Positions 29,521 through 57,100 of a DNA stretch of 64,000 nucleotides are shown here, one piece after another (within the stretch, counting starts at the first letter, position 1; each line of letters begins with the position of its first letter). Origin of the DNA: Tetrahymena thermophila SB210 (lineage: Eukaryota > Ciliophora > Oligohymenophorea > Hymenostomatida > Tetrahymenidae). The notes below the pieces were generated by a model. It saw only the letters and a program-made list of their open reading frames with translations, was not told the DNA's origin and made no database searches. Where the stretch lies: assembly GCF_000189635.1 (NCBI RefSeq), contig NW_002476523.1:248001-312000 (forward strand). Reading direction: 5' to 3'. Made by a program: the position numbers and the translations under genes.

Positions 29521-31476
29521 ATTCTATACACCAAATCAGATAATTTACTTATTTTTTACCTGAATTTTAGATATTTCTTTTATCAATAAAAAAATAATTA
29601 TCATGTCTATTTTATTAGTTAAAAAGACCAAAAAGACAACTATGCAAAGAAAAAAGAATTAAATAATTACCATTATATACAAATAATTTAAATAGTTTTC
29701 AAATAGTTATCAGTGATAAAAATTGTATAAAAATTTTTTAATATTTTAATATTTATATGCCATAAAACCTTACTTAATTGGTATTTAACTAAGTGATTTT
29801 GCCATAAATTAACCATTTTTATAATAAATAAAAATAATATTCTAAGACATAAAGTATTTAAATTGCTAAAACGAAAGAATCATATTACACTTGATTAGAA
29901 AATTTTAAAATTATGGTAGAAACTTTAATTAATTTATCTAAGTTACAAATAATAACTAACTAACTAACTCATGTTTTAGATATTGTAAATTAATAGAAGA
30001 AGCAGTTTACATTATTAATAAAAATTTACACTGAAACGTCTTATTTGCTTAATGATAATAATAATCTCTTATAGATAGAAAAAAATATATTTATAATTAT
30101 ATAAAAATTTATATTAAAATATTTTTTAAGAAAATGCTTCATTCATACTTATTCAAACAGTAACCATATTTCAGTTTTAATATTAGATAAAGATATTTAA
30201 ATCAAAAACATTTTATTAAATATCTTTTTCAATCAAGCAATTTTTATAAAAAAAAGCATTTAAAATTTAAAAGAAAATGCTTGTCAAATTTATTCAAATG
30301 AATTTTGTAAACTAAATTCTTCACTTTAACCTATTATCTTTATTACACAATTTGATTCTGAAAATTCAATATTAATTAATAACTTATTCAGAATTGATTA
30401 GAATTTTTAAGAAAAATTTAATTATATAACTTATTTATTAAATATATCTTAAAATACGATTTTCTTAATTAAAAACTAAATCATTCTTCAATTCGTATTT
30501 TTATTTTTGAAAAGTGAAACAATTATTTTTTGATTTGTTTTTCGATGTCATATTTTCAAGCAAAAATAAATAAACTCAATACATTTTTTTATATTACTGA
30601 AAAATAATAAAAGCTTTTTCACAGCATCTATAAATATTAATAACTTCGAGAAAACTTTTCCATTTATCATTATTTTAAGATATTTTAAAAAATAATTTTA
30701 TAAAATTCCTATAATTAGTGTTTTTATTATTAGATGACTGACAATCATATTTGAACTCATATTTACTTTAAGTTTTGAAAAATAAAATAATTATTTTTAC
30801 TTGTTTTGTTTTAAACAATCATAAATAAAATTGAAAAAATAAAAATTCACCTGTTTTAAGATTAGATCTAAGTAAATCATTTTGAAAGATTACAATTTAA
30901 AGAATTTGTAGGATTAATTTAATTATTTTTTGTAATTTGAATTTTTATCAAAATAATGTAGAAAAAATTATTTGTGTAAGTAAAATAGTGTTATCAGGTT
31001 AGATAATAATAATATTGCTATCAATATTTTCAGGTTAGAATAACTTTTTAATCTGATTACCATAATTATAGATTTTTGAATTGAATGTATTGTAATATTG
31101 AATACACGTTTGCATAAAGAAATAATTTAGCAAAATCTATGAGATTTTTAAGAATAATTAAAAATATTTTATATATCTCATAATAAAGAATATTTTTGTG
31201 ATTATTTGCAGTAGCTAAATATAATTTTAGAAATCTATTTTGTAAAAAAAATTTTTTAATTTGTATAAAAGATAAGTGATTATTATATCTTTGATTTTTA
31301 AAAACAAATTGTTTATTAGATTATTCACCTAATTTGAAAGGAATGTTTAAATAAATAAAATCTAATTATAATATTGAAAGTTACAAATTCATCTTTAAAT
31401 ATTATTAGTGTTTCACAGTGTTTTGAAAATTAATAATCAAATTAAATAAAAAACATAAAAAATAATCTTAAATCAA
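29521..31476 (+). other. Upstream region of antigen gene A
   Basis: About 2 kb of non-coding DNA that is paralogous along most of its length to the DNA upstream of antigens B and C. Shared blocks include TTCAGAATTGATTAGAATTT near 30389 and ATTATTAGTGTTTCACAGT near 31400, just before the start. It presumably contains the promoter. Confidence 0.6.
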
Positions 31477-33699
31477 ATGAAAAACTTAAATTTCATAATT
31501 TTCATAAGTTGTATTTTGTTTTCAACTATAAAAGCCAATATTAAAGGAAGTTATATTGGTTGTGCTTATAATAACTAAAATTGTTCTAAATGTGGTTCAA
31601 CTTCTGACATTTAGTAACTGTTTACCTATCTATAAGGAGCCTGTTATGTTACTGATTGTTCAAATATTGGAAATGCCAAGAATGGTTGGATTTGCTAATC
31701 TTGTTATAATGGCGATTAATAAGTTACAGCGGGTGAATATTTTGATGGTACAAACTGTGTTAATAATTGCCCTTAAAATTAATATGCAAGTTTTCTTACA
31801 AGTTATTAATGTCAAGTAGCAAACCCAGGTTAGGGAGTTACATGCAATCAAGGTTCTCAATAATGCGATGGATGTGGAAAAGATGGAGATTACACAAATT
31901 AATTTAATTATGATCAAGGAGATAATGTTTGTTACATTATGGATTGCTCTTCTAACGCATCTACATTTTTAAATGGTTATGTTTGTAACTCCTGTAGTAC
32001 TGCTTCTGGAAGTGGAAATATTCCTAAAGGTAAATTTTATGATCATAAAACTTGCACAGATTCTTGTCCTGCAGGTTATAAAGCAGATTAATCTACTGGA
32101 TTTGTTTGTTTAGCCCCACCTAATCCAGGTACTTAAGTTTAATGCTCTTAAGATTCATAAACTTGTAGTGGATGTGGAAATAATCCCGATACTCAAAACT
32201 TGTTTAATTATGTATCTTAGTAAAACTGCTCTGTTATTGATTGCCATTACTATGCAACTACATCTCTAAATGGTTGGATCTGTAAATCTTGTGCCCTTGC
32301 CACTGGAAGTGATAATATCCCATAAGGTGAATTCTATGACCCAAATGCTAATACTTGCGTTAAAAGTTGCCCAATTGGAACATCAGCAAGTGCTAATACT
32401 AATTACATTTGCAAACCACTTCCAGTAGCGGTTCCCTGCTCTAATGATTCTTCAACGTGTAAAGGATGTGGAAGCGATGCTACTGCATAAGGTTAATTCA
32501 ATTTTGTGAGCGGAAATAATTGTATTGTTAATGATTGCACTTAGGTCGCTGTGTTTAATGGTTGGGTCTGTAATTCTTGTAACCCATTATTTATCAATAC
32601 ACCCATGTAAGGAAAATATTATAATGGTTAAGCCTGTGTAGAAAATTGCCCTCCTGGTTAATCAGCAAGTGCTGCTACTGGTTATACTTGTTAAGTAATG
32701 AATCCAGGGGTGCCGGTAGCATGTTCAAAAGATACATAGACCTGTGGAGGATGTGGATCAACAAACGATATTTAAAACTTATTCAGTAAATCTAAAGGTA
32801 ATTCATGTTAAGTTAATGATTGCTCTTCCAACATAATTGGTTCTAATTTGAATGGTTGGATTTGTAATTCTTGTTAAAATGCTTCTGGTAGTGGTAATAT
32901 TGCTGCAGGTTAATATTTTGATGGTAAAACTTGTGTAAAAAATTGCCCATCAGGATAACAAGCTTCTGCTGCTACTGGATTTGTTTGCTAATACCCTCCA
33001 AGTCCTGGAACTACTGTAGCCTGCTCTACTGATTCTTCAACTTGTGGAGGATGTGGAGCGACTAATGCGTTATAAAACTTATTTACTCATGGAAAAGGAA
33101 ACCTATGTTCTGTCACTGATTGTAACTTGTCTGTAGTTGGATCTAATCTTAATGGTTGGGTTTGTAATTCTTGTTAAAATGCATCTGGAGGAGCTAATAT
33201 TGCTGCTGGTTAATATTTTGATGGTAAAACTTGTGTAAAAAATTGCCCATCAGGATAACAAGCTTCTGCAGATACTGGATTTGTTTGCTAATACCCTCCT
33301 AGTCCTGGAGCTACTGTAGCCTGTTCTACTGATTCTTCAACTTGTGGAGGATGTGGAGCAACTAATACAATATAAAACTTATTTACTCATGGAAAAGGAA
33401 ACCTATGTTCTGTAACAGATTGTAACTTATCTGTGGTAGGATCTAATCTTAATGGTTGGGTTTGTAACTCTTGTAGTTCAGCTTCTGGTAGTAATAATAT
33501 TCCTGTAGGCTAATATTACGATGGAAAAACATGCGTAGCTAATTGTTCTAGTGGCCAAACAGCAACTGCAGATACTGGATATGTGTGTAAAACACTATCT
33601 AATCCTTCTTCAGGAAATAATAACTAATCTACTACATCCAATTCAAGTCTAATAAATTTCATTTTAGGCTTTGCTGCTATTCTAAATTTATTATTCTGA
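31477..33699 (+). CDS. Surface antigen A, immobilisation-antigen-like, 7 Cys repeats
   Basis: Predicted GPI-anchored surface coat protein of the Ser/i-antigen type. It is one exon of 741 codons (740 aa) ending in TGA; TAA/TAG-coded Gln is abundant. Residues 1-20 (MKNLNFIIFISCILFSTIKA) form a signal peptide. Seven repeats of about 90-105 aa follow. Each opens with CSxDSxTCxGCG, continues with CxVxDC, LNGWxCNSC and YFDGxTCVxNCPxG, and closes with TGxxC. A typical unit has ten cysteines, mostly in CxxC or CxxxC pairs. The C-terminal 17 or so residues are hydrophobic (LINFILGFAAILNLLF) after a Ser/Asn-rich spacer, as for GPI attachment. It is longer than the best known SerH proteins because it has more repeats. 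It is a paralogue of genes B and C, with nearly the same signal peptide and tail. Function is inferred from the family. Confidence 0.88.
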
Positions 33700-34326: not shown

Positions 34327-36817
34327 GTCACCCATATTGAGCATCTTTATGTTATTTTTATAATTTATACTATTTATATTATAGTTTAAAAATAAGAATA
34401 TCTGTTATTGGTAAAATATAGTTTTAATAAAAAAAATAATTTCTGTAATTTATTTAATAATATTTTCAAAAATATTTAAGACTAAATATACAAATTTTCT
34501 TCAAAATAAACAAATACATTAAAAGAAGTTATTTTGAAATAATAAATATAAATTTTGTTTAAAAAATTAATTTTTATTTCCTAAATACTGAATTCAATAT
34601 AATTAAATGATTTACAGTTGGGGGGTTTTAATTTTGTGATCCGCAATATGTTATAAAGTATATTATTTATCGTTTTCAGAATTGATAAGAAAATTAATAA
34701 CTAATTTATTTTATAACTTATTTGAATAATTAAATCAAATTTCAAAACAGAGTATATTAATCTGAAATAATTATATTTACATCTCACTATCATTTTTCAA
34801 AGAAAAAAAAAAAATATATATAAAAATATAGAATATCCAAATTATTTATTAATAAAGGTAGAATTATAAATAAATTTTTATTTTACTTATATCAAATAAT
34901 AATGTAAAAAAATAACTTTTTAATTATAAAAAGATATTTATATATTATTAAATTAATTCTATATGCCAAATCACAGATCAGCTAATTTGCTTATTTTTTA
35001 CCTGAATTTTGGATATCTCTTTTATCAATTAAAAAAATAGTATAATGCTCATTTGCTTAGTTAAAAAAATCAAAAGAAAACTAAGTAAGGAAAAAAGAAA
35101 TAATTACCATTATAATACATGAATATTAAAAAATAATTTAAATAGTTTTCTAACTAATAGTTATCAGTGATAAAACTTTATAAAAATTCTTTGAAATTTT
35201 AATATTTATATACCTTAAAATTCAACTTAATAGATATTTAATTAGTAAATGTTGTCATAAATTGAACATTTTTACTATAAATAAATCACACTCTAGATAG
35301 ATATGAAATATATAAATTTCTAAAGCCTGAAGAATCATGTTACGCCTGATTTAAAAATTTTTCAATTAATGATAAAAACATCAATTTATTATTTTAAGTT
35401 ACAAATAATAAGTAACTCTTGTTTTAGATATTGTAAATTGATGAGAAAGAAGGATCAGTTTACATTATTAATATAAATTTAAATTGAAACATCTTATCTG
35501 TTTGCTGTTATGATTAGAATAATCTCTATGGATTGAGAAAATAAAATTATTAATATATATTAAAAATATAATCTCAAATATTTATTCAGAAAACACTTTA
35601 TTCATACTTATTCAAAAAATAACCATATTTTAATTTCTATATAAAATAAAGAAATTTAATAATATTTTATGAAATATCTTTTTTTATCAAACAATTTTTA
35701 TATTATAAACATTTAAAATCTGTAAGAAAAGGCTTGTCAAATTGATTCAAATCAATTTTTTAAACTAATTTCTTCACTTTAGCCTATTATTTTAATTACA
35801 CTATTTGATTCTGAAAATTCAATATTAATTAATAACTTATTCAGAATTGATTAGAATTTTTAAGAAAAATTTAATCAAATATATCTTCAAGTACAATTTT
35901 CTTAATTAAAAACTAATTCTTCAATTCGTATTTTTAAAAAGTGAAACAATTATTTTTTTGATTTGTTTTTCTCTATCAAGCTTTCAAGCAAAAAAACAAA
36001 CAATAAAGTTTTTATTCAACATCTGTAAATATTAATAACTTAGAGCAATTTTTTTAATTTATCATTATTTTAAGATATTCTAAAATATAATTTTATGAAA
36101 TTCATATTATGTGCTTTTATTATAAGATGGATGGCGATCATATTTTAATTCGAAAGACATATTAATTATCCTTAACATATAAAAATTCATCAATTTTTAG
36201 ATTAGATCTAAGTAATTAATTGAAGGATTACATTTAGAATTTATAAGATTAATTTAATTATTTTTTGTAATTCAAATTCTTTCTAATAACAATTAAGGGA
36301 AAATTATTTATGTAAGCTAAAAAGAGTTATTAAGTTAATGTTAGTAATAATAATAATAATGCTACAAATATTTTCAGGTTAGTATAGCTCTGTAATCTGA
36401 TTTCCTTAATTATAGTTACCGTAATTCATCAATATTAGTTCCTTGATTCGTATTAAATCGTACATACTCTAGTGAGGAATTCAACTTACATTTTTTTTTA
36501 ATATTATATTTTAGTACAGATAATTATTTTGAATATTTAATAGTAGATAAATTTTGTTTTAGAAATATTTTTTGTATAAAAATAAAAATTTTTGAATTTT
36601 AAAAAAAAGATTTGCAATTATTGTATCTTATGATTTTTAAAAAATCAACTTTTTGATTAAATAATTTACCTGATTTAAAAGAAATATTTAAGAAATTAAA
36701 ATCTAATTATAAAATTGACTGTTTCAAATTCATCATTAAATATTATTAGTGTTTCACAGTTTTTAGAAAATTAATAATTAAATTAACTAAAAAACATAAA
36801 AAATAATCTTATGTAAA
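34327..36817 (+). other. Upstream region of antigen gene B
   Basis: Non-coding DNA. From about 34580 it parallels the upstream regions of A and C, with CAGTTGGGGGGTTTTAATTT at 34615, CAGAATTGATAAG at 34677 and TTCAGAATTGATTAG near 35841. Confidence 0.6.
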
Positions 36818-39046
36818 ATGAAAAACTTAAATTTCATAATTCTCATAAGCTATATTTCATTTTCTGCTATAAAAGCCATTATTTAAGGTGATGAAACTGA
36901 TTGTTCTTATGATAACTAGAATTGCTCTGCATGTGGTTCAACTCCTGACATTTAGCAACTATTTACCTATAATTCAAATCAATCCTGTTATGTGACTGAT
37001 TGTTTAACTATTGGAAATGCCAAGAATGGTTGGATTTGCTATTCTTGTTTTAATAGCATTTAATAAGTTACACCGGGTCCATTTTTTGATGGTACAAACT
37101 GTGTTAATGAGTGCCCTTAAGGTTAATAAGCAGGAGATTTTTCAAGTTATATATGTGAAGTAGTAAATAGTGGTTAGGGGGTTAATTGTGATCAAGGTGA
37201 TCAAACTTGCAATGGATGTGGAAAAAACGTTTATTACGCTTACTAATTTAGATATAATAATAATGGAGATAATTTATGTTATGTTTTTGATTGCTCTCCT
37301 AACGCAGTTAAATTTTTAAATGGTTATGTTTGTAACTCCTGTAGTACAGCTCCTGGAAGTGGAAATATTCCAAAAGGTAAATTTTATGATCATAAAACTT
37401 GCACAGATACTTGCCCTCCAGGTTATAAAGCAGATTTATCAACTGGATTTGTTTGTTTAGCCCCGCCTAATCCAGGTACTTAAGTTTAATGCTCTTAAGA
37501 TTCTTAAACTTGTAATGGATGCGGAATAAATCCTGATACTGTAAGCATGTTTAATTATGTATCTGAATAAAATTGTTCTGTTATTGATTGCCATTACTAT
37601 GCATTTACATCTCTAAATGGTTGGATATGTAAATCTTGTGCCCTTGCCACTGGAAGTGATAATATCCTATAAGGTGAATTCTATGACCCAAATGCTAATA
37701 CTTGCGTTAAAAACTGCCCAATTGGAACATCAGCAAGTGCTAATACTAATTACATTTGCACACCAGTTCCAGTAGCGGTTCCATGCTCTAATGATTCTTA
37801 AACGTGTAAAGGATGTGGAAGTGATGCTACTATATAAGGCTAATTCAATTTTATGAGCGGAAATAATTGTATTGTTTAAGATTGCACTTAGGTCACTAAG
37901 TTTAATGGTTGGGTCTGTAATTCTTGTAGCTTTGTTAATACCAATACACCTTTATAAGGAAAATATTATAATGGTTCAAGTTGTACAGACAATTGCCCTC
38001 CTGGTTAATCAGCAAGTGCAGCTACTGGGTATACTTGTTAAGTAATCAATCCAGGGGTGCCTGTAGCATGTTCAAAAGATGTATAGACCTGTGGAGGATG
38101 TGGATCAACAAGCGATATCTAAAACTTATTCACTAAATTAAAAGGTACTTCATGTTAAGTTACTGATTGCTTTTCCAACATAATTGGTTCTAATTTGAAT
38201 GGCTGGATTTGTAATTCTTGTTAAAATGCTTCTGGTAGTGGTAATATTGCTGCAGGCTAATATTTTGATGGTAAAACTTGTGTGAAAAATTGTCCTATCG
38301 GTTAACAAGCATCTGCAGATACGGGATTTGTTTGCTAAAACCCTCCTAATCCTGGAGCTAATGTAGCCTGCTCTACTGATTCTTCAACTTGTGGAGGATG
38401 TGGAGTAACTAATGCCATATAAAATTTATTTACTCATGGAAAAGGAAACTTATGCTCTATCACTGATTGTAACTTGTCTGTGGTAGGATCTAATTTGAAT
38501 GGTTGGGTTTGTAATTCTTGTTAAAATGCTTCTGGTAGTGGTAATATTGCTGCAGGCTAATATTTTGATGGTAAAACTTGTGTGAAAAATTGTTCTATCG
38601 GTTAACAAGCATCTGCAGATACGGGATTTGTTTGCTAAAACCCTCCTAATCCTGGAGCTACTGTAGCCTGCTCTACTGATTCTTCAACTTGTGGAGGATG
38701 TGGAGCAACTAATGTCATATAAAACTTATTTACTCATGGATAAGGAAACGTATGTTCTGTCACTGATTGTAAATTATTTGTAGTAGGATCTAATCTTAAT
38801 GGTTGGGTTTGTAAATCTTGCAGTTTAGCTTCTGGTAGTAGTAATATTCCTGTAGGTTAATATTACGATGGAAAAACATGCGTAGCTGATTGTCCTAGTG
38901 GTCAATCAGCCACTGCAGATACTGGATATATGTGTAAAACATCATCTAATCCAGCTTCAGGAAATAATAACTAATCTACTACATCCGATACAAGTCTAAT
39001 AATTTATATTTTAGGCTTTGCTAATATTCTAAATTTATTATTCTGA
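36818..39046 (+). CDS. Surface antigen B, immobilisation-antigen-like, 7 Cys repeats
   Basis: Single exon of 743 codons (742 aa) ending in TGA. The signal peptide is MKNLNFIILISYISFSAIKA. Seven ten-cysteine repeats follow with the same grammar as gene A, then a hydrophobic GPI-type tail (LIIYILGFANILNLLF). An ATG seven bases upstream is out of frame and was not used. The last two complete repeats are offset by exactly 300 bp and differ at only a few bases. In one of them the usual NCP proline is Ser. Upstream and downstream flanks are paralogous to those of A and C. It probably serves as an alternative surface coat, which is inference from the family. Confidence 0.88.
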
Positions 39047-39862: not shown

Positions 39863-40477
39863 TTAGAGATATTATAAATATTCCTAAAATTACAGAACTA
39901 AAACAGAAAAATCTACTTATAAACATTATTTTTATAAAATTTAAGAACATTAACTATTAGAATTTTTTCAAATAGGACTAAATAAATAACTAACCATATC
40001 TAATTCCTACTATATATATTTTTAAGCCTTTGTTTTAAATACAAATATTAAATTTAAATAGTGAAATTTAAATATATTTTTCTGTGATATCTCTTCATAA
40101 AACCAAATTATAAATTTATATTTGATAATTAATTAATTATTATATTTATTTGTTCTTTTTATCCATTTATAATTAATTAATAAATTAATCAAATTTAATA
40201 AATTGCTATTCAATATTTTTGAAAAATAAATAAATGATATAATAGATTAAAAAATATAACTAATTAGAAGAAGTAATTATTAATTTTTATATTAATATCC
40301 TTTAAATTTATTTTAATTAATAAAAAAAGTTTTTAAGGTCTTCATATTTACCTCATTAGATTCTCCATATTGATCTCAAGTATATTTAATTAAAAGATAT
40401 TATTTTTTTTATTATTAATATATTTTGTATATTTAATTTTCAATTTTTTAAATAAATAATTTTTATAATAGAAATTA
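39863..40477. other. AT-rich sequence left of the assembly gap
   Basis: No gene and no trace of the LRR exon-intron unit that fills the right side of the gap. The 5' exons of the LRR gene are therefore not visible here. Confidence 0.5.
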
Positions 40478-40577
40478 NNNNNNNNNNNNNNNNNNNNNNN
40501 NNNNNNNNNNNNNNNNNNNNNNNNNNNNNNNNNNNNNNNNNNNNNNNNNNNNNNNNNNNNNNNNNNNNNNNNNNNNN
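40478..40577. other. Assembly gap (100 N)
   Basis: Exactly 100 N, the usual placeholder for a gap of unknown length. It sits at the left edge of a tandem repeat array, where short-read assembly tends to break. Confidence 0.98.
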
Positions 40578-40650
40578 TTTGTTAATTTTATTTATTATTA
40601 ATTAATCTTATTATTTCATATTTTTTTTTCATTTTTCCCTCCTAATTAAA

Positions 40651-40963
40651 TAGAGTGAAATGCCGCCTTTTTAATTTATAAAAGGCGAAATGCAATATAT
40701 CTTAATAACTTAATATAAAGCTAAATTAGCTTAAAATAGCTTTATTTTTGAGTTTATAGAAAGCTTTAAATTCAGAAAATGTCAAATTTGAAATTATATA
40801 TACCACATATTCTTATATAATATCATTTTTTTGAAAAATATAAATTTTGAAAACCTAGGATGGAAAAAAACACATAAAAAATATTTAAAATTTTAATTTT
40901 ATAAAATATAAAAACTGGTATATTAAACTCGCTTTTTGTAAATTTGTATGGCAACTTACTCTA
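40651..40963. mobile_element. TA-flanked inverted-repeat element 2, inserted in an LRR intron
   Basis: A 309-bp element begins GAGTGAAATGCC and ends GGCAACTTACTC, flanked by TA on both sides. The surrounding sequence (CCTAATTAAA before, TTTAATGATATATTTTTTC after) is the standard LRR intron (CTAATTAACTATTTAATGAT) split at its TA. It contains an inner hairpin with CGCCTTTT and AAAAGGCG arms. No coding capacity. The end sequence relates it to element 1. Confidence 0.75.
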
Positions 40964-40998
40964 TTTAATGATATATTTTTTCTTCAATATTTAAAAAG

Positions 40999-43900
40999 GT
41001 CTAATTAAATTGGTGCAATTGGTGCATCACGCTTAGGTTCTGGTTTAGCAAAATGCATTAATCTCTCAAATTTGACACTTGACCTTTAGTAAAAACAGTT
41101 TATTTATTTTGGATTGTGATATTTTTAATTATAAAAACTAATTAAAAACAATAAAACTCTTTTTTCTTTTTCTTTTTATCGTGCTTGTTTTTTTTTGTAT
41201 TTTCTTTGTTAATTAAGCTCATCATTTATTTTAAACTTTTGCTTTTATTATTAATTAATCTTATTATTTCATATTTTTTCTTCATTTTTTCCTTCTAATT
41301 AACTATTTAATGATATATTTTTTCTTGAATATTTAAAAAGTAACAATAAAATTGGTGATGAAGGTGCATCAGGTTTAGGTTCAGCTTTAGCAAAATGTAT
41401 TAATCTCTCAAATTTGACACTTTACCTTTAGTAAAAACAGTTTATTTGTTTTGGATTGTGATATTTTTAATTATAAAAACTAATTAAAAACAATAAAGTT
41501 CTTTTTTCTTTTTCTTTTTATCGTGCTTTTTTTTTTTGTATTTTCTTTGTTAATTAATCTCATCATTTATTTTAAACTTTTGCTTTTATTATTTATTAAT
41601 CTTATTATTTCATATTTTTTCTTCATTTTTTCCTTCTAATTAACTATTTAATGATATATTTTTTCTTTAACATTTAAAAAGTTCTAATTAAATTGGTGAT
41701 GAAGGTGCATCAGGTTTAGGTTCTGGTTTAGCAAAATGCATTAATCTCTCAAATTTGACACTTGACCTTTAGTAAAAACAGTTTATTTGTTTTGGATTGT
41801 GATATTTTTAATTATAAAAACTAATTAAAAACAATAAAGCTCTTTTTTCTTTTCCTTTTTATCGTGCTTGTTTTTTTTTGTATTTTCTTTGTTAATTAAT
41901 CTCATCATTTATTTTCAACTTTTGCTTTTATTATTAATTAATCTTATTATTTCATATTTTTTCTTCAATTAACTATTTAATGATATATTTTTTCTTCAAT
42001 ATTTAAAAAGTTCTAATTAAATTGGTGCAATTGGTGCATCAGGCTTATGTTCAGCTTTAGCAAAATGCATTAATCTCTCAAATTTGACACTTTATTTTGG
42101 GTAAAAACAGTTTATTTATTTTGGATTGTGATATTTTTAATTATAAAAACTAATTAAAAACAATAAAGTTCTTTTTTCTTTTTCTTTTTATCTTGCTTGT
42201 TTTTTTTTTGTATTTTCTTTGTTTATTAATCTCATCATTTATTTTAAACTTTTGCTTTTTTTATTAATTAATCTTATTATTTCATATTTTTTCTTCATTT
42301 TTTCCTTCTAATTAACTATTTAATGATATATTTTTTCTTCAATATTTAAAAAGGTCTAATTAAATTGGTGATGAAGGCGTGTCAGGTTTAGGTTCTGGTT
42401 TAGCAAAATGCATTAATCTCTCAAATTTGACACTTAATTTTGAGTAAAAACAGTTTATTTGTTTTGGATTGTGATATTTTTAATTATAAAAACTAATTAA
42501 AAACAATAAAGTTCTTTTTTCTTTTTCTTTTTATCTTGCTTTTTTTTTTGTATTTTCTTTGTTAATTAATCTCATCATTTATTTTAAACTTTTGCTTTTA
42601 TTATTAATTAATCTTATTATTTCATATTTTTTCTTCATTTTTTCCTTCTAATTAACTATTTATTGATATATTTTTTCTTCAATATTTAAAAAGGTCTAAT
42701 TAAATTGGTGCAATTGGTGCATCAGGCTTAGGTTCAGCTTTAGCAAATTGCATTAATCTCTCAAATTTGACACTTTACCTTTAGTAAAAACAGTTTATTT
42801 ATTTTGGATTGTGATATTTTTAATTATAAAAACTAATTAAAAACAATAAAGTTCTTTTTTCTTTTTCTTTTTATCTTGCTTTTTTTTTTATGTATTTTCT
42901 TTGTTAATTAATCTCATCATTTATTTTAAACTTTTGCTTTTATTATTAATTAATCTTATTATTTCATATTTTTTCTTCATTTTTTCCTTCTAATTAACTA
43001 TTTAATGATATATTTTTTCTTCAATATTTAAAAAGGTCTAATTAAATTGGTGATGAAGGTGTGTCAGGCTTAGGTTCTGGTTTAGCAAAATGCATTAATC
43101 TCTCAAATTTGACACTTGACCTTTAGTAAAAACAGTTTATTTATTTTGGATTGTGATATTTTTAATTATAAAAACTAATTAAAAACAATAAAGCTCTTTT
43201 TTCTTTTTCTTTTTATCTTGCTTGTTTTTTTTTTGTATTTTCTTTGTTTATTAATCTCATCATTTATTTTAAACTTTTGCTTTTTTTATTAATTAATCTT
43301 ATTATTTCATATTTTTTCTTCATTTTTTCCTTCTAATTAACTATTTAATGATATATTTTTTCTTCAATATTTAAAAAGTTTAAATTAAATTGGTGATGAA
43401 GGTGCGTCAGGCTTAGGTTCTGGTTTAGCAAAATGCATTAATCTCTCAAATTTGACACTTCACCTTTAGTAAAAACAGTTTATTTATTTTGGATTGTGAT
43501 ATTTTTAATTATAAAAACTAATTAAAAACAATAAAGTTCTTTTTTCTTTTTCTTTTTATCTTGCTTGTTTTTTTTTGTATTTTCTTTGTTAATTAATCTC
43601 ATCATTTATTTTAAACTTTTGCTTTTTTTATTAATTAATCTTATTATTTCATATTTTTTCTTCATTTTTTCCTTCTAATTAACTATTTAATGATATATTT
43701 TTTCTTCAATATTTAAAAAGGTCTAATTAAATTGGTGATGAAGGCGTGTCAGGTTTAGGTTCTGGTTTAGCAAAATGCATTAATCTCTCAAATTTGACAC
43801 TTAATTTTGAGTAAAAACAGTTTATTTGTTTTGGATTGTCATATTTTTAATTATTAAAGCGAATAAAAAAAAAAATATATTTGAATTTATTTGATAGCTT

Positions 43901-44126
43901 TTATTTGATTTATTTTTTTATCTTTTTTATTGCACTAATATTATTTTATTTATTAATCTAAAGAATAATTTTTAATTTAAAAGTTTATTGTATTTTGATA
44001 TTTATTTAAAATTTACACAGATTTATTTTATAATTTTTTAGCTCAATGAATATATCATAAAATTTGAAAGTAAAAAGCAAGTATCGTAAATCAAAAAGAT
44101 TAGTTGTCTTTAATTTTAATTTCTGA
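40999..44126 (+). CDS. Leucine-rich-repeat protein, 3' part, nine duplicated 90-nt exons
   Basis: The 5' end is missing in the assembly gap. Nine exons of exactly 90 nt are seen: 40999-41088, 41341-41430, 41682-41771, 42011-42100, 42354-42443, 42694-42783, 43036-43125, 43379-43468 and 43721-43810. A terminal exon, 44042-44126, follows and ends in TGA. Each exon starts and ends in the same codon phase, so any number can be joined. Each encodes one 30-residue LRR of the ribonuclease-inhibitor style: xNQIGDEGASGLGSGLAK, then CINLSNLTLDL. The terminal exon encodes a basic cap containing KVKSKYRKSKRLVVFNF. Introns of about 240-250 nt are nearly identical between units, including their TTTAAAAAG acceptors and GTAAAAACAG donors. 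LRR proteins of this wording are abundant in Tetrahymena, often with an N-terminal kinase or other domain. That part cannot be seen here. Expression is unproven. Confidence 0.75.
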
Positions 44127-45229: not shown

Positions 45230-47526
45230 TATATTTTAGATAATACATTTTATTAATATTGAATTCAAAATAATTATGTTATTTACAGTTGGGGGTTTTA
45301 ATTTTGTGATCTGCAATATGTTATGAAGGAATTAATCATTTATCTTTTTCAGAATTGATAAGAAAATTAATAACAAATAAATTATATAACTTATTTGATA
45401 AATGTAATCAAATTTCAAAACAGAATACGTGAATCTGAAATAAATATATTTAACATTTCGCTATCATTTTTCAAAGTAAATAAAAAACCTATCGAAAAAA
45501 AAAGAATAGCTAAATTATTAACTTTAAAAAAGGTAGAATTATAATTAAATTTTTATTTTATATTTTTCAAATAATAATGTAAAAAAATAACTTTTTAATT
45601 ATAATAAGATATTTATTATTAAATTAATAACACTCTATACACCAAATCACAGATCAGCTAATTTACTTATTTTTTACCTAATCTTTAGATATCTCTTTTA
45701 TCAATTAAATAAATAGAATGCTCATTTGATTTGTTAAAAAGATCAAAAGACTAAGTAAGGAAAAAAGAAATAATTACCATTTTAAGACATGAATATTAAC
45801 AAATAATCTAAATAGTTTTCAAATAATTATCAGTGATAAAACTTTATAAAAATTTCTTTGATATTTTAATATTTATATACCTTGAAATATAACTTAATGG
45901 ATATTTAACTAGCTGATGTTGGTTGTCATAAATTGAACAATAAAAAAATATATCACACATTAGATATAAAATATATAAATTACTAAAGCCTGAAGAATCA
46001 CGTTACACCTGATTTAATTTTTTTTTAAATTAATATAAACATCAATTTATTTATTTAAGTTACAAATAATAAATAATCTTTTTTTAGATATTGTAAACTG
46101 ATTAGATAGAAGATCAGTTTACATTATTAATAAAAATTTAAATTGAAACATCTTATCTGTTTGCTGTTATGATTAGAATAATCTCTATGGATTGAAAAAA
46201 TATATTATAAAATATTTATTCAGATTATTCATACTTACTTATTAAAAATAATCTTTTTTTAATATAAAATAAAGAAATTTAAATCAAAAATATTTTATAA
46301 AATATTTTTATTTTATAAACATTAAAAATTTGCAAAAAAATAAATGCTTGTCAAATAGATTCAAATGAATCTGTAAACTAATTTCTTCGCTTTAATCTAT
46401 TTTCTTAATTACACAATTTTATTCTGAAAATTCACTATTAGTTAATAACTTATTCAGAATTGATTAGAATTTTTAAGAAAGAATTAATTATATAACTTAT
46501 TTATTTATTTATTAAATATATCTTCAAGTACGATTTTCTTAATTAAAAACTGATTCTTCAATTTGTATTTTTTAAAAGTGAAACAATTATTTTTTTATTT
46601 GTTTTTCGCTATCATGCTTTCAAGCTAAAAACAATAACTTAATATATTTATTTAGGTTATTTTTTTATATTACAAATGGACAATAAATAAATACAATTTT
46701 TTTAATTTATCATTATTTTAAGATGTTTTTAAATATAATTTTAAATGGAATTCATATAAAGTGCTTTTATTGTAAGAATAATAGATGACAGTCATATTTT
46801 GATTTGAAAGACATATTTAAAAAAATTTTGAAAAAATAAAATAATTATTTTTACTCTTTTTAAAACAACCATAAATATCCTCAATATATTAAAATTCATC
46901 TATTTTCAGATTAGATCAAAGTAATTAAATTTTGAAAGATAACATTTAAAGAATTGGTAGGATTAATTTAATTATTTTTTGTAATTTAAATTCTGTATCA
47001 TAATAAATACAGGAAAGTTGCTTGTGTAAGCTAAAAAGCGTTATTACGTTAATGTTAGTAATAATTATAATAATACTATAAATATTTTCAGGTTAGTATA
47101 GCTCTGTAATCTGATTTCTTTAATTATAGATATCTGAATTAAATATATTGTAATTTAGAATACACAGTTAAGAATGAAATACCTCTGCAAAATTTACGTG
47201 ATTTTTTAATTTTTCAGGAATAAAAAATATTTTATATCTTCATAAAGATAATTTTTTTGAATATTTATAGTAGATAAATTTTGTTTTAGAAATCATTTTT
47301 GTATAAAAAATAAAAATTTTTAATTTTAAATAAAATAATTGTGATTTTTGTATCTTATGATTTTTAAAAATCAAATTGTTGATTAAATAATTTAAAAGAA
47401 ATATTTAAAAAATTAATATTATATTGACAGTTTCAAATTCATCATTAAATATTATTAGTGTTTTACAGTTTTCTGAAAGTTAGTAATTATATTAACTAAA
47501 AAACATTAAAAATAATCTTATTTAAA
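45230..47526 (+). other. Upstream region of antigen gene C
   Basis: Non-coding DNA paralogous to the upstream regions of A and B. It has CAGTTGGGGGTTTTAATTTT at 45286, CAGAATTGATAAGA at 45350, TTCAGAATTGATTAG near 46450 and ATTATTAGTGTTTTACAGTT near 47451. Confidence 0.6.
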
Positions 47527-50052
47527 ATGAAAAACTTAAATTTCTTAATTCTCATAAGTTGTATTTCATTTTCAGCTATAAAAGCCTAGATTTTAGGTAA
47601 TAATATGCCTTGTTCATATGGTAACCAGAATTGCTCTGCATGTGGTTCAACTCCTGACATTTAGCAACTATTTACCTATTAAAATGGATCCTGTTATGTT
47701 ACTGATTGTTAAACCATTGGAAATCTCAAGAATGGTTGGATTTGCAATTCTTGTTATAATGGTGATTAATAAGTTACATCAGGTCAATATTTTGATGGTA
47801 CAAACTGTGTTAATGAGTGCCCTTAAGGTTAATAAGCAGGAGATTTTACAAGTTATATTTGTGAAGTAGTAAACCAAGGTTAGGGGGTTGGTTGCGATCA
47901 AGGTGATCAAAATTGCGATGGATGTGGATAAAATGATTATTACACTTAATAATTTACATATAATAACGGAGTTAACCAATGTTAAGTTACTAATTGCTCT
48001 ACTAACGGAGTTAGATTTTTAAATGGTTATGTTTGTAACTCCTGTAGTACTGCTTCTGGAAGTGGAAATATTCCAAAAGGTAAATTTTATGATCATAAAA
48101 CTTGCACAGATACTTGTCCTTCAGGTTATAAAGCAGACTAATCTACTGGATTTGTTTGTTAAGCCCCACCTAACCCAGGAACTTAAGTTTAATGCTCTTA
48201 AGATTCTTAAACATGTAATGGATGTGGAAATAATCCCGATACTGTAAACATGTTTAAACATGTATCTGGGTAAAATTGCTCTGTTATTGATTGTCATTAA
48301 TATGCATTTTCTGCATCTGTAAATGGTTGGATATGTAAATCTTGTGCCCTTGCCACTGGAAGTGATAATATCCCTTAAGGTGAATACTATGATGAAAATG
48401 CTGATACTTGCGTTAAAAGCTGCCCGATTGGAACATCAGCAAGTGCTAATACTGATTACCTTTGCAGACCAGTTCCAGTAGCGGTTCCATGCTCTAATGA
48501 TTCTTCTACGTGTAAAGGATGTGGAAGCGATGTTGCAACATAAGGCTACTTTAATTATGTGAGCGGAAATAATTGTATTGTTTAAGATTGCACTTAGGCA
48601 ACTAAATTTAATGGTTGGGTCTGTAATTCTTGTAGTTTTGTTAATGCTTAAACACCTTTTTAAGGAAAATATTATAATGGTTCAAGTTGTACAGACAATT
48701 GCCCTCCTGGTTAATCAGCAAGTGCAGCTACAGGGTATACTTGTTAAGTAATCAATCCAGGGGTACCTGTAGCATGTTCAAAAGATGCATAGACCTGTGG
48801 AGGATGTGGATCGACAAGTGATATCTAAAACTTATTCAGTAAATCTAAAGGTAATTTATGTGAAGTTACTGATTGCTCTTCCAACATAATTGGCTCTAAT
48901 TTGAATGGTTGGATTTGTAATTCTTGCTAAAATGCTTCTGGTAGTGGTAATATTGCTGCAGGTTAATATTTTGATGGTAAAACTTGTGTAAAAAATTGCC
49001 CACCAGGATAGCAAGCTTCTGCAGATACCGGATTTGTTTGCTAATACCCTCCTAGTCCTGGAACTTCTGTAGCCTGCTCTACTGATTCTTCAACTTGTGG
49101 AGGGTGTGGAACGACTAATTCCATATAAAACTTATTTACTCATGGAAAAGGAAACCTATGTTCTGTCACTGATTGTAACTTATCTGTGATAGGATCTAAT
49201 TTGAATGGTTGGGTTTGTAATTCTTGTTAAAATGCATCTGGAGGAGCTAATGTTGCTGCAGGCTAATATTTTGATGGTAAAACTTGTGTGAAAAATTGTC
49301 CTATCGGTTAACAAGCATCTGTCGATACTGGATTTGTTTGTTAAAACCCTCCTAATCCTGGAGCTAGTGTAACCTGCTCTACTGATTCTTCAACTTGTGC
49401 AGGTTGTGGAGCAACTAATACGATATAAAACTTATTTACTCATGGATAAGGAAACATATGTTCTGTCACTGATTGTAAATTGTCTGTGGTAGGATCTAAT
49501 CTTAATGGTTGGGTTTGTAATTCTTGTTAAAATGCATCTGGAGGAGCTAATGTTGCTGCAGGCTAATATTTTGATGGTAAAACTTGTGTGAAAAATTGTC
49601 CTATCGGTTAACAAGCATCTGTCGATACTGGATTTGTTTGTTAAAACCCTCCTAATCCTGGAGCTAGTGTAACCTGCTCTACTGATTCTTCAACTTGTGC
49701 AGGTTGTGGAGCAACTAATACGATATAAAACTTATTTACTCATGGATAAGGAAACATATGTTCTGTCACTGATTGTAAATTGTCTGTGGTAGGATCTAAT
49801 CTTAATGGTTGGGTTTGTAAATCTTGCAGTTCAGCTTCTGGTAGTAGTAATATTCCTGTAGGTTAATATTACGATGGTAAAACATGTGTAGCTGATTGTC
49901 CAAGTGGTCAATCAGCAACTGCAGATACTGGATATGTATGTAAACCATTATCTAATCCTGCTTCAGGAAATAATAACTAATCTACTGCATCCAATGCAAG
50001 TCTAATAACTTTCATTTTAGGCTTTGCTGCTATTCTAAATTTATTATTCTGA
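47527..50052 (+). CDS. Surface antigen C, immobilisation-antigen-like, 8 Cys repeats
   Basis: Single exon of 842 codons (841 aa) ending in TGA. The signal peptide is MKNLNFLILISCISFSAIKA, followed by eight ten-cysteine repeats and a hydrophobic GPI-type tail (LITFILGFAAILNLLF). It has one repeat more than A and B because a 300-bp unit is duplicated without a single base change (see the repeat at 49204-49820). The duplicated unit opens CSTDSSTCAGCG, differing from the usual GGCG. Repeats 1-5 match those of B closely. Its role as a surface coat protein is inferred from the family. Confidence 0.88.
49204..49820 (+). repeat. Perfect 300-bp tandem duplication inside antigen C
   Basis: Bases 49204-49520 are identical to 49504-49820, an offset of exactly 300 bp or 100 codons. 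Differences appear at once on either side (49203 against 49503, 49521 against 49821). This is one whole Cys repeat added in frame. Confidence 0.95.
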
Positions 50053-52409: not shown

Positions 52410-53335
52410 AAACAAAAAACTGTAACTTAAATTTAAAAATATAAAAGAAATAATTTGAAAATAGCTTCTGTAAGCAAATCTTGTTTTTATAATACATCAA
52501 TTATTTATATTCAAGATATAATTTGCATTCAAGCATATTTCAGAATTTATTAAGTTCAATATAAGTTAATCTTGTTCAGAATTTGTAAGAAAATTTATAA
52601 ATAATTAATTTTTATAACTTATTCAATAATTTGTATTCAGATTGATGAGTGATAATGTTAATCAAGTTTTTTTAATTACATTTTCAAAAATATATAAATA
52701 AATACAAGACTGATAGTTTCTAATAATATAATTTTAAATTTTGTAACTTAATTTTTAATAAATAAAAGAAATAAATTGAAAATAACTTTTGTAAGCAAAT
52801 ATTGTTTTAATAATATATCAATTATTTAATATTCAAGATATAATTTTCATTGAAGCATATTTTAGAGTTTTTTAAGTTGAATACAAGTTAATCTTGTTTA
52901 GAATTAGTAAGAAAATTTATTAATAATTAATTTTTATAACTTATTCAATAATTTGTATTCAGATTGATGAGTGATAATGTTAATCAAGTTTTTTTAATTA
53001 CATTTTCAAAAAATATAAATAAATATATGACTGTAAGTTTCTACTAATTTTAAATTTTGTAACTTAATTTTAAATAAATAAAAGAAATAAATTGAAAATA
53101 ACTTTTGTAAGCAAATATTGTTTTAAAAATAGTTCAATTATTTATATTCAAGATATAATTAGCATTCAAGCATATCTTAGAGTTTTTTAAGTTGAATACA
53201 AGTTAATCTTAACCAGAATTAGTAAAAAAGTTATAAATAATTAATTTTTATAATTTGTTCAATAATTTGAATTGATTTTTATGAGTGATTATTTATGTAA
53301 ATCAAATTTTTTTAATTAAATTTTCTAAAATGTAT
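52410..53335 (+). repeat. Three tandem copies of a ~318-bp unit upstream of antigen D
   Basis: Copies are marked by GTAAGCAAAT(C/A)TTGTTTT at 52470, 52791 and 53107 (spacing 321 and 316). Each also has TTCAAGATATAATT and a TCAGAATT(T)GTAAGAAAA-like block or variant of it. No coding capacity. Confidence 0.82.
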
Positions 53336-53369
53336 AAATGTATGCATGACTAATAGATATTTGCTAGTA

Positions 53370-54170
53370 ATTCAAATTTTTTATTTATATAAAAAATAAA
53401 AGAAAGTGAAACTAAATATTTAGATTAGTTGAATTATAAAAATAATCAATTTATTTATTAAAAGGATCAGTTTTTATCATCTACTGTTGATAATTATTAA
53501 TTAATAACTAAGTTTTTAAAATTATAAATTATTAATTAGTAGGATTAATATATTCATAATTTTTCTTTGTCACTTTTACACTTACGACAGAAGTTTCATA
53601 TTATTATAAAATCAGCCACTGATCTATCTAACTGTCATTTTCAAAAGCAATTGAAATCATTTTCTAATTTATGTAACTTAAACTTATAGCAATACATATA
53701 GATAAATGAATAAAGCAAATAAATATTTAATTTTTGATATTATAAATTAAAAAATAAATATATTGGTGTATACATAAATGATATTTACTAATAATTTTTA
53801 AATTTGTATTTAGATATAATATAAAAGAAAGTGAAACTAATTATTTAGATTAGTTGAATTATAAAATAATCGATTTATTTCTTAAAAGTATCAGCATTTA
53901 TCATCTATTAGTGACAATTATTAATTAACAACAAAGTCTTAAAAATTATAAATTATAAATTAGTAGGATTAATATAGTAAGAGTTTTACTTTTTCACTTT
54001 ACACTTAAAACAGAAGTCTCATTTTATTATGACATCAATAACTATTATAACTTTCATTTTCAAAAATTATTTAAATCATTTATTATATTAATTTTTGTAA
54101 CCTAATTTTATGATAATAAACATAAATAAATGTATGAAACAAATAAATATTTTATTTTTGATATTATAAA
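53370..54170 (+). repeat. Two tandem copies of a ~430-bp unit upstream of antigen D
   Basis: The block AAAAGAAAGTGAAACTAA, then TTTAGATTAGTTGAATTATA, occurs near 53397 and again near 53822. Similar sequence continues downstream of both, including CAGAAGT(T/C)TCAT. The copies have diverged by scattered changes. Confidence 0.78.
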
Positions 54171-54880
54171 ATAATTTATTTCGTCTATTCAATCCATTTT
54201 GAATAAAATATTTCTAAAATATTATAATTTTTTATAGACTTTTAAATGATTAAATAGAAAAAATAAAATTTGAGTAAGATTACTTTTTGTGATATAATAG
54301 GATTAATTTATTATTTTTTACTTTCAACGCATATTTAAATTAAAAAATAAAAAGTTGTATTGTAACCTTTTTGAGGTTTATAATATATCTCCAAAATTAA
54401 TTTCAATATTATTAGCTTATAATATCAGGAGTATTTCTTAGTTTTCAATACATTATTATATTTAAATATATAATACATACAGTAAAACCTATTAAAATCA
54501 CACTACTCATTTGAGGGCCGATCACCATTTATTTTCTCGGTTTTTTACACTTTATTATTTCCAAAAATTAATAATAAAAGTAAAACCTTAACAATGGTTA
54601 TTACAGTATTTAGATTTTTTTATTTTTTTAACAATAATTAATAATTCATAAAGGTATATGAGTTAAAGCAGTTGCATTTGAAGATCTTAAATCAATATTT
54701 AGTAATTATCAATAGACTTAAATTAAATTATGATGATTCTTAGATGGTAATAACAAAAAAATTAATCTAAATGGGAAAAAAAAAGTTTCAAATTTCACTT
54801 TAAATCTTTTCAGGTTTAATATTCATACAGATTTAATAATCAAATTATTCAACAAACTTTTAGAATAAACATTTAGAAAA
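54171..54880 (+). other. Proximal upstream region of antigen D
   Basis: Non-coding, with one GC-richer patch (CATTTGAGGGCCGATCACC at about 54510). It does not match the proximal upstream DNA of A-C, so D may be controlled differently. Confidence 0.45.
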
Positions 54881-57100
54881 ATGAAAAATTTATTCATCCT
54901 TGTGGTTTTCTTTAGCTCTCTTATGCTTACTGTTATCTGTTAACCAGGGAATCCTGTTTATTGTTCTTTGGATGGAACTTGTAAAGCATGTGGATATACT
55001 AGTTAAATCTCAAATTTGTTCTCATTGAAGAGTGGTTATTAGTGCTTTATTGCTGATTGCTCAAAAATCGGAACTAATAAAAATGGTTTTGTTTGTGGTT
55101 CTTGCACTTAATATACATTTTACGATGGCACTGATTGTATTTAGAACTGCCCTTAAGGTTAATATGCAAATAGATATACATAAAATAATTGTTAAACAGC
55201 AAATCTTGGAAGACTTGTTAAATGTAGTGATTAGGCTGCAGATTGTTCAGGGTGTGCAAATAACTTAGATGCCATTTCTTAATTTAAATTTGATTCTTAA
55301 ACATAGTAATGTATGATTAATGACTGCTCTGCTAATGTATTATATCTTTTTTTGAATGGATTCGTTTGTAATTCTTGTTATTAAGCTAAAGGAAATGGTA
55401 ATGTTCCTTCAGGTTAATATTACGATCCTAATGCTTAAACTTGTGTAGATACTTGTCCTCAAGGTAAATATGCGAATTAATTAACTAAATTTATTTGCGT
55501 AAATTAACCTAATCCAGGAACTGGAGTTTCATGCTCTAAAAACTCTAAAGATTGTACTGGATGCTAGTTTGCAAACCTATTTGCTTATGGATCTGGAAAT
55601 ACTTGCTCAGTTATTGACTGTAAGTAAAGTACTATTAATCTTAACCTTAATGGCTGGGTTTGTAATTCTTGTTCCCTTGCTCCTGGAATAGGTAATATCC
55701 CTTAAGGTTAATACTATGACTCTAGAAGTAAAACATGTGTAAATACTTGTCCTAATAATGGAGTAGCAAGTGCTGATACTAATTTTATTTGCGTAACAAA
55801 TCCTGCTCCTGTTCCATGTTCAAATGATTCTTCTACATGCAATGGATGTGGAAATGATAATTCCATTTAATAATTGTTCTAATATGTAAGTGGAAATAAT
55901 TGTAATGTTATAAATTGTTCAGCTCCTGCACTTAATTCTACACTTAGTTCTTCTTAAAACTCGAATTTTGCTGGATGGATTTGTAGATCTTGTGGTGTTG
56001 TTACTGGAGCTAACTATCCTGTACTTGATGGATAATATTTCTTAGATACTAAAGTTGGATGTGTCAGTAAATGTCCTGATGGATATATAGCAAATTTAGC
56101 AACTGGATATAATTGCTAACAAACTAATCCAGGTTAAGATGTTGCATGCTCTAACGATTCTTAAACTTGTAATGGATGTGGATTAACAAGTGATATCTAA
56201 AATTTATTCAGTAAATCAAAAGGTAGCTCATGTTCTGCTATTGACTGCCATTCGAAAATAATTGGTTCTAATTTGAATGGTTGGATCTGTAATTCTTGTT
56301 AAAATGCTTCTGGAAGTGGAAATATAGCTAAAGGTTAGTATTTTGATGGTAAAACTTGTGTGTCAAGCTGTCCTACTGGTTAGCAAGCAAATTAAGCAAA
56401 TGGATTTACTTGCTAATACCCTCCTAGCCCTGGTAGTGATGTAACCTGCTCTACTGATTCTTCAACTTGCGGAGGATGTGGATCTACAAATGCCATATAA
56501 AACCTGTTTACTCGTGGAAAAGGAATCAATTGCTCTGTTACAGATTGTAATTTGTCTATAGTTGGCAATAATCTGAATGGCTGGGTCTGCAATTCTTGTA
56601 GCTCAGCATCTGGAAATTACAATATTCCTAAAGGATAATTCTATGATGGAAAAACTTGCGTACCAAACTGTCCTAATGGTTAATAAGCCAGTGCAAGTAC
56701 TGGATTTGTTTGTAGAGGTCAAGGTACAGACGTTGCATGCTCTAGTGATTCCTCAACTTGTGGAGGATGTGGATCAACAACTGCCATTTAAGGCCTCTTC
56801 ACTCATAGTAAGGGTAATAATTGTTCAGTTACTGATTGCTCAACAGCTGGAGTTGGATCTAATCTGAATGGTTGGGTTTGTAATTCTTGTAGTTAAGCTA
56901 CTGGTAGTGGTAATATAGCCTCAGGAAAATATTACAACGGTTCAACATGCGTATCGGAGTGTCCAAGTGGCTAATCAGCAAGCGTAGCTACTGGATACGT
57001 ATGTAAAGTAGCATCTACTCCTGCTGCAGGAAATAATGCCTCATACTCAAATCTAATTGGTTATGTTTTAGTTTTTGCTATTTTAAATTTCTTCTTCTGA
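54881..57100 (+). CDS. Surface antigen D, immobilisation-antigen-like, 7 Cys repeats
   Basis: Single exon of 740 codons (739 aa) ending in TGA. The signal peptide, MKNLFILVVFFSSLMLTVIC, differs from that of A-C. Seven Cys repeats follow. The first three are divergent (CSLDGTCKACG, CSDQAADCSGCA, CSKNSKDCTGCQ). The last three are close to those of A-C (CSNDSQTCNGCG, CSTDSSTCGGCG, CSSDSSTCGGCG). The repeat in the middle has an expanded loop (about 10 extra residues, rich in Ser and Asn). The C-terminus (LIGYVLVFAILNFFF) is a GPI-type hydrophobic tail. Repeats 5-7 resemble A-C more than repeats 1-3 do, which suggests exchange between loci. Surface-coat function is inferred. Confidence 0.87.

What the first reader, a model, noticed from the sequence alone, without database searches (positions are those of the whole stretch)
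40999..44126. Nine phase-matched 90-nt LRR exons duplicated together with their introns
Seen directly: nine exons of identical length, each one 30-residue LRR, are spaced at 329-343 bp with nearly identical introns. All begin and end in the same codon phase, so any number of exons can be spliced together without a frame change. The last joins in phase to a distinct terminal exon ending in TGA. The repeat number can therefore change by unequal exchange or by alternative splicing. Inference: this is a device for generating diversity in a binding surface, next to a variable antigen cluster.
Basis: partly seen in the sequence, partly recalled or inferred. Interest (0 to 1): 0.8.

Follow-up and report, generated by a model that had tools for sequence, protein, structure and literature searches.

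The report
Tetrahymena LRR gene, hypervariable splice-junction residues
This is a gene of the ciliate Tetrahymena built from nine near-identical leucine-rich-repeat exons, one of a large published family; in the copies compared here variation is concentrated in three amino acids per repeat on the predicted binding face, right at the splice junctions, while the introns between them stay much more alike.

Summary
I add exon 1 (40234-40379): the model has 11 exons, 346 aa, and the 100-N gap lies in intron 1. The genome matches Tetrahymena thermophila (TERT segment 101 of 102 residues identical to PDB 2r4g). The class is published: "90-bp exon, phase 2 intron" LRR genes, unequal crossing over proposed (PMC6564038). 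The architecture is not new. Beyond the passages of that paper that I read: in 31 of 31 arrays tested, the nine nucleotides of codons 28, junction and 1 (exposed positions of LxLxLxxN) diverge more than the introns, about 0.5 differences per site whatever the array's age, while 66 framework nucleotides keep the introns' clock. In three arrays, 14 of 14 unit pairs with 0-1 intron and no framework differences still differ at 3-7 of these nine. "Diverse binding surface" is thus supported; alternative splicing is untested; the antigen link is unsupported. Favoured cause: diversifying selection plus recombination in homogenised introns; the selection evidence is mixed.

The parts
40234..40379 (+). 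Exon 1, ATG start, ends with 2 nt of a split codon (phase 2)
   Evidence: Same kind of start and frame in 21 of 24 candidate rows from relatives, GT donor. Inferred gene model, no transcript
40380..40998 (+). Intron 1, interrupted by the assembly gap 40478-40577; holds a conserved non-coding segment of about 305 nt
40999..41088 (+). 90-nt LRR exon 1 of 9
41341..41430 (+). 90-nt LRR exon 2 of 9
41682..41771 (+). 90-nt LRR exon 3 of 9
42011..42100 (+). 90-nt LRR exon 4 of 9
42354..42443 (+). 90-nt LRR exon 5 of 9, identical to exon 9
42694..42783 (+). 90-nt LRR exon 6 of 9
43036..43125 (+). 90-nt LRR exon 7 of 9
43379..43468 (+). 90-nt LRR exon 8 of 9
43721..43810 (+). 90-nt LRR exon 9 of 9
41089..43720 (+). 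Span of the eight internal introns (239-253 nt each, between the nine exons), mean pairwise identity 97.9%
43811..44041 (+). Last intron, 231 nt, GT...AG
44042..44126 (+). Terminal exon, ends in TGA; sequence alike in the 5 relatives aligned, stop position differs

Best explanation
A young ('group III') 90-bp-exon LRR gene of Tetrahymena thermophila with an intact predicted frame, encoding a 346-aa LRR solenoid. Units of one exon plus one intron are gained and lost by recombination in long near-identical introns; because every junction has phase 2, any unit fits any other. The intron sits inside the codon in the middle of the predicted concave beta-strand, so recombination in an intron can make a new junction residue and re-pair the variable residues on either side. 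Diversifying selection keeps residues 28, junction and 1 of each repeat different, while framework codons and introns follow a common slower clock. The protein probably binds varied partners, most likely inside the cell. Shown here: exon structure, phase, concentration of variation at these codons, its independence of intron age. Inferred: expression, splicing, selection as the cause, the concave position, binding function.
For: Exact structure and frame through 11 exons; LRR_6. 0 of 249 exons (relatives and window) carry an in-frame TGA. Amino-acid entropy over these 249: codon 1 3.68 bits, junction 3.48, codon 28 2.91; then codon 7 2.40, codon 3 1.89, codon 6 1.73, codon 15 1.47; 20 of 29 codons are under 1. 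Within-array divergence per site: nine junction-codon nt 0.509 (set A, 23 arrays) and 0.453 (set B, 8 arrays), framework 0.062 and 0.049, introns 0.067 and 0.040. Junction codons exceed introns in 31 of 31 arrays; framework and intron divergence correlate across arrays (rho 0.75), junction codons and introns do not (rho 0.14, p 0.46). Sharp edges: nt 83, 85, 89, 90 and 1-4 at 0.32-0.66 (nt 84 at 0.20), the next nt 5-7 and 86-88 at 0-0.07, first and last 10 nt of introns 0.046 and 0.035. The junction's third base is T in 184, G in 43, A in 8 and C, always synonymous with T, in 1 of 236. Synonymous steps at junction codons are 43 of 385 against 0.16 expected blind (p 0.008), in the framework 127 of 465 against 0.244 (p 0.15). 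Published class: more than 98% of introns before 90-bp exons in phase 2, exon number variable among inparalogs, ectopic recombination (PMC6564038 sections 9 and 15).
Against: Whole-exon tests do not show selection: pN exceeds pS in only 14 of 25 arrays, not in the window's own (0.095 against 0.157), and pS exceeds intron divergence in 22 of 25. In the window array the framework (0.052) and its synonymous sites (0.080) also exceed the introns (0.021). Synonymous difference is raised at codon 28 (95 of 319 same-residue pairs, 0.298) against 0.062 in the framework (codon range 0.004-0.160); codon 1 (0.138) lies within that range. In exon 1 the third base of the last Leu codon, mostly synonymous, differs at 0.70 (26 sequences). 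The deficit of synonymous steps is modest. Rarity of C at exon nt 1 could reflect a splice preference, though the terminal exon begins with C after AG in the window and all 5 relatives aligned. The paper reports Ka/Ks below 1 for most of these genes (median about 0.4 for LRR genes found in one or two species). No transcript, structure model or ligand.
Confidence: 0.6

Rival explanations
1. Site-targeted diversification: the codons around the splice junction are changed by a dedicated mutational or copying process, not only by selection.
For: Junction codons are far diverged even where introns and framework are identical: 14 of 14 pairs with at most 1 intron and 1 framework difference (all 14 have 0 framework differences) differ at 3-7 of 9 nt. 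Variation has sharp edges with no rise in neighbouring sites. Synonymous difference is raised at codon 28.
Against: The junction third base is almost never C (1 of 236) although T to C there is silent. States recur within arrays more than between arrays (identical 3' state 0.079 within, 0.011 between), which fits duplication and shuffling. The 14 pairs come from only three arrays (L024, L030, L034). No template, editing enzyme or DGR-like part was looked for.
Confidence: 0.12
2. Old variants shuffled by short-tract recombination: alternative residue blocks are ancient and are exchanged among units, while conversion homogenises everything between mismatch clusters. It can act together with selection.
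For: Codons 6-7 switch as blocks (GATGAA 117, GCAATG 50 of 295 exons); blocks reassort in L030. Same 3' state raises sharing of the 5' state in the same exon, 28 of 103 against 185 of 1298 at baseline, but not across the intron, 8 of 62. pS above intron divergence in 22 of 25 arrays fits exon segments older than their introns.
Against: Needs tracts that end within a few nt of each variable codon; no raised variation in linked neighbours.
Confidence: 0.3
3. One reading: different exon subsets are joined in different transcripts.
For: All junctions are phase compatible.
Against: Phase symmetry follows from duplication alone; no RNA evidence here, and the class paper's main text does not use the term alternative splicing.
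Confidence: 0.05
4. Inert or decaying repeat array without function.
For: The paper's section heading reports low expression of species-specific genes in axenic culture. Stop position of the terminal exon varies among relatives.
Against: Open frames in 249 of 249 exons, exon 1 frame kept in 21 of 24 rows, conserved leucines, site-specific variation; the paper says many of these genes are expressed (section 27).
Confidence: 0.05

Closest known systems
[quoted passage not shown] 2019, PMC6564038)
   Same: Exactly 90-bp exons, phase 2 introns, tandem array of at least 3, introns near the published T. thermophila peak of about 257 nt, nucleotide-level repeats, large family (1,500 T. thermophila LRR genes with a 90-bp exon, 934 in group III)
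   Different: Nothing in architecture. The concentration of variation at residues 28, junction and 1 and its independence of intron age are not in the passages I read; 'hypervariable', 'solvent', 'ligand', 'concave' and 'positive selection' occur 0 times in the main text and the amino-acid logos leave the junction residue out. The figures were not seen
Plant NLR resistance genes with diversifying selection on xxLxLxx positions (search listing only; otherwise recalled)
   Same: Variation concentrated on solvent-exposed beta-strand positions of LRRs
   Different: No NB domain found here, one exon per repeat, junction codon split by an intron
Lamprey variable lymphocyte receptors (recalled)
   Same: Modular LRR units with a variable concave face
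   Different: Those are assembled somatically from cassettes; here no somatic assembly was shown or tested
Human NLR LRR exons (PMC6642158, start of the abstract in the listing)
   Different: Alternative splicing is reported there, not tested here; near-identical tandem units are a feature of this locus

Membership tests
[quoted passage not shown]
   9 of 9
[quoted passage not shown]
   10 of 10 introns in the gene model
[quoted passage not shown]
   T in 249 of 249 exons at nt 36, 48, 66, 81, 87 and in 248 of 249 at nt 75; LRR_6
Group III (youngest) subset | Nucleotide-level intragenic repeats and long introns | tested here: met
   introns 239-253 nt
Group III (youngest) subset | Masked by a published consensus repeat sequence (CRS) | not tested
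   CRS sequences not at hand
[quoted passage not shown]
   code 6 frames; TERT segment 101 of 102 residues identical to 2r4g_A, (that this entry is T. thermophila is recalled)
Group III subset | Physical association with the REP retrotransposon in the germline genome | not testable with these tools
   I know of no micronuclear sequence among the collections offered
Diversity-generating retroelement | Template repeat, dedicated reverse transcriptase, adenine-specific changes | not tested
   named only as an analogy

The most novel reading that the evidence does not exclude
A eukaryotic microbe carries thousands of LRR exons in which a germline process specifically diversifies the codons straddling each splice junction, uncoupled from the clock of the surrounding exon and intron: an inherited, combinatorial recognition repertoire in a single-celled organism.
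Probability: 0.12. Interest if true: 0.9.

Novelty: new member of a known kind. Interest (0 to 1): 0.55.

Why it matters
The authors of the class proposed on general grounds that some of these genes serve recognition of bacteria or neutralise noxious products (PMC6564038 section 27). The pattern here gives that idea a site-level, testable form: it names three residues per repeat that should contact a partner, offers each intron as a clock beside its exon, and poses a clean question, selection or targeted change, that strain and germline sequencing can settle.

Tried and rejected
Rejected: array truncated by the N gap (exon 1 found upstream). Rejected: a start codon in the 305-nt intron segment (the ATG at 40860, gives the wrong phase, by eye; the segment has indels among relatives). 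Rejected: equal-rate neutral divergence of duplicated units. A gradient of divergence around the variable codons was looked for and not found. Structure prediction was not run: the spliced protein is not a contiguous translation of the window, so the concave mapping rests on general LRR knowledge. My first Pfam and PDB queries used a hand-typed 90-aa string of three units in which two of three junction residues differ from the gene; Pfam was repeated on the true spliced protein, the PDB search was not.

Limits of the counts. The junction, intermediate and framework classes were defined after seeing 249 exons and then tested on the same loci (set A) and on set B of 8 arrays, of which 6 are new loci and 2 (L044, L048) extend loci already seen; L004 and L006 were dropped from set A for that reason, and L007 from then on as an overlap with L006. 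L001-L003, L009 and L015 (window overlaps), L016-L019 (replaced by longer L022-L025), L020 (short, not used though a separate place) and L021 (TERT) were left out. Exons whose predicted ends did not carry AG and GT were dropped (NOSNAP rows), so counts favour intact units. Units followed by a gap outside 150-330 nt were dropped; arrays with fewer than three units likewise. One search sampled at most 45 pairs per array; its 24 of 25 has L036 as the exception. Relatives were chosen by similarity to the window, not at random; only 40 of 3496, 638 and 793 candidates were scored, so nothing here is a genome-wide count. In one search ties between equal steps were broken in favour of synonymous ones. 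Exon-1 sequences were picked by a donor-like pattern; 27 found, 26 kept (window included; one with a TGA dropped); one (L041) is shifted by a codon.

Full report
Observation. The nine exons are present exactly as described. Each is AG|90 nt|GT, reads as 1 nt + 29 codons + 2 nt under the ciliate code (TAA and TAG = Gln), and has no in-frame TGA. The eight internal introns measure 239-253 nt. TRF reports period 342, 8.5 copies, score 5011. The structure is far beyond chance.

Gene model. Relatives share a coding exon upstream of the array that ends in the same phase: window 40234-40379, MIQQIKKYNQLEEVIINFYINILQIYFNQQKKFLRSSYLPHQILHIDL; 21 of 24 candidate rows keep this kind of start and frame. 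The terminal exon 44042-44126 is alike in the 5 relatives aligned, with the stop at differing places and none within the stretch shown in one. Joined, the 11 exons give 1041 nt, 346 residues, no internal stop, with Pfam LRR_6 at 1.8e-27. The N gap lies in intron 1; in L022-L025 280-289 nt stand there, with no intact exon seen, only what looks to me like a decayed LRR exon (by eye). This is inference from sequence; no transcript was available.

Organism and class. A telomerase reverse transcriptase segment of the same assembly is identical in 101 of 102 aligned residues, the exception at the very edge, to PDB chain 2r4g_A, which I recall as Tetrahymena thermophila. The assembly is 101,022,631 bases in 445 contigs. 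Xiong et al. 2019 (PMC6564038; read: abstract, sections 9, 10, 11, 27, part 1 of section 15, and found passages; [quoted passage not shown] thermophila, and propose unequal crossing over, possibly with retrotransposition. This locus fits on every point tested. Searches for the class: each returned this paper alone;'s 46 papers 15 were listed, this one first; (with 'hypervariable') returned 2 other papers, judged from the listing only.

Exons vary more than introns. In the window array exons are 88.1% identical on average and introns 97.9%. Variable columns: 8 of 9 nt in the three junction codons, 8 of 15 in five intermediate codons (3, 6, 7, 15, 18), 9 of 66 in the framework, 15 of 253 in the introns; junction codons against introns p = 8.5e-9, framework against introns p = 0.06. 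In 24 of 25 arrays mean exon divergence exceeded intron divergence.

Where the exon variation lies. Over 249 exons amino-acid entropy peaks at codon 1 (3.68 bits, 19 residues), the split junction codon (3.48, 19 residues) and codon 28 (2.91, 16 residues); leucines 22, 25, 27, 29 and asparagine 2 are kept in 237-247 of 249. The reading L25-T-L27-x28-L29-J-x1-N2 is the LRR beta-strand motif, with x28 and J on the exposed concave side and x1 in the following turn; this mapping is general LRR knowledge and was not tested by a model.

Uncoupling from the clock. Across 31 arrays, 224 units and 867 pairs, the nine junction-codon nucleotides differ at 0.44-0.54 per site in each of seven bins of intron divergence from 0 to 0.4, while framework divergence rises from 0.006 to 0.099. 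Array means: intron against framework rho 0.75, p 1e-6; intron against junction codons rho 0.14, p 0.46. Junction codons exceed introns in 31 of 31 arrays, the intermediate codons in 30 of 31. Framework lies below introns in 15 of 23 and 2 of 8 arrays, no consistent difference (p 0.19 and 0.20); in the window's own array it lies above (0.052 against 0.021). In 14 pairs with at most one intron and one framework difference, all from L024, L030 and L034, 3-7 of 9 junction-codon nucleotides differ; none of the 14 is identical there. Identical exons do exist elsewhere, such as window exons 5 and 9. Between arrays: introns 0.100, framework 0.071, junction codons 0.595 (250 random pairs).

Cause. For selection on amino acids: the variable positions are the exposed ones; the always-synonymous C at the junction's third base is nearly absent (C 1, T 184, G 43, A 8 of 236), although a splice preference could contribute; synonymous steps are fewer than a blind process would give at junction codons (43 of 385, 0.16 expected, p 0.008) and intermediate codons (35 of 288, 0.181 expected, p 0.007) but not in the framework (127 of 465, 0.244 expected, p 0.15). 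Against a pure selection account: pN exceeds pS in only 14 of 25 arrays and pS exceeds intron divergence in 22 of 25; synonymous difference is raised at codon 28 (0.298 against 0.062 in the framework), while codon 1 (0.138) lies within the framework's codon range; a mostly synonymous site near the end of exon 1 is very variable (0.70). Exon 1 otherwise shows the same tendency: its last variable codon and two junction nt 0.39, the rest of the stretch 0.16, the first 16 intron nt 0.10. Block switching at codons 6-7 and reassortment in L030 show that existing variants are shuffled too; sharp edges without linked variation limit that account. I put most weight on selection together with recombination and keep targeted change open at 0.12.

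Neighbours. Four long open frames on the same strand (31378-33699, 36719-39046, 47428-50052, 54737-57100) begin with a hydrophobic leader, hold 71-81 cysteines and end in a hydrophobic tail, as described for the cysteine-rich, GPI-linked Ser surface proteins of T. thermophila (PMC4136848, abstract). Membership was not tested: Pfam gave only DUF4428, in three of the four and over its cut-off in one. A functional link with the LRR gene is unsupported.

Noticed in passing
window 31378-33699, 36719-39046, 47428-50052, 54737-57100: Four Ser-like cysteine-rich open frames with hydrophobic leader and tail; the first three contain 300-bp tandem repeats (32842-33537, 38189-38877, 48895-49941).
   Followed up: partly
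window 40650-40960: A non-coding segment of about 305 nt in intron 1, in the same place in the 18 relatives aligned (these were chosen by a query that included it, and some carry deletions). Origin unknown; possibly related to the published retained REP tail, which I could not compare.
   Followed up: partly
window 28750-29519, 52421-53339, 53356-54174: Tandem duplications of 387, 322 and 424 bp near the antigen frames; by eye a stretch near 45288 resembles the 387-bp unit.
   Followed up: no
L022, L024, L025 and other contigs: Many relatives lie within about 2 kb of a contig end, so the assembly probably breaks in these arrays and true unit counts may be higher.
   Followed up: no
G000:C50:235357-235675 and C50:371419-371679: Two further LRR 3' ends lie on the same contig as the window.
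   Followed up: no
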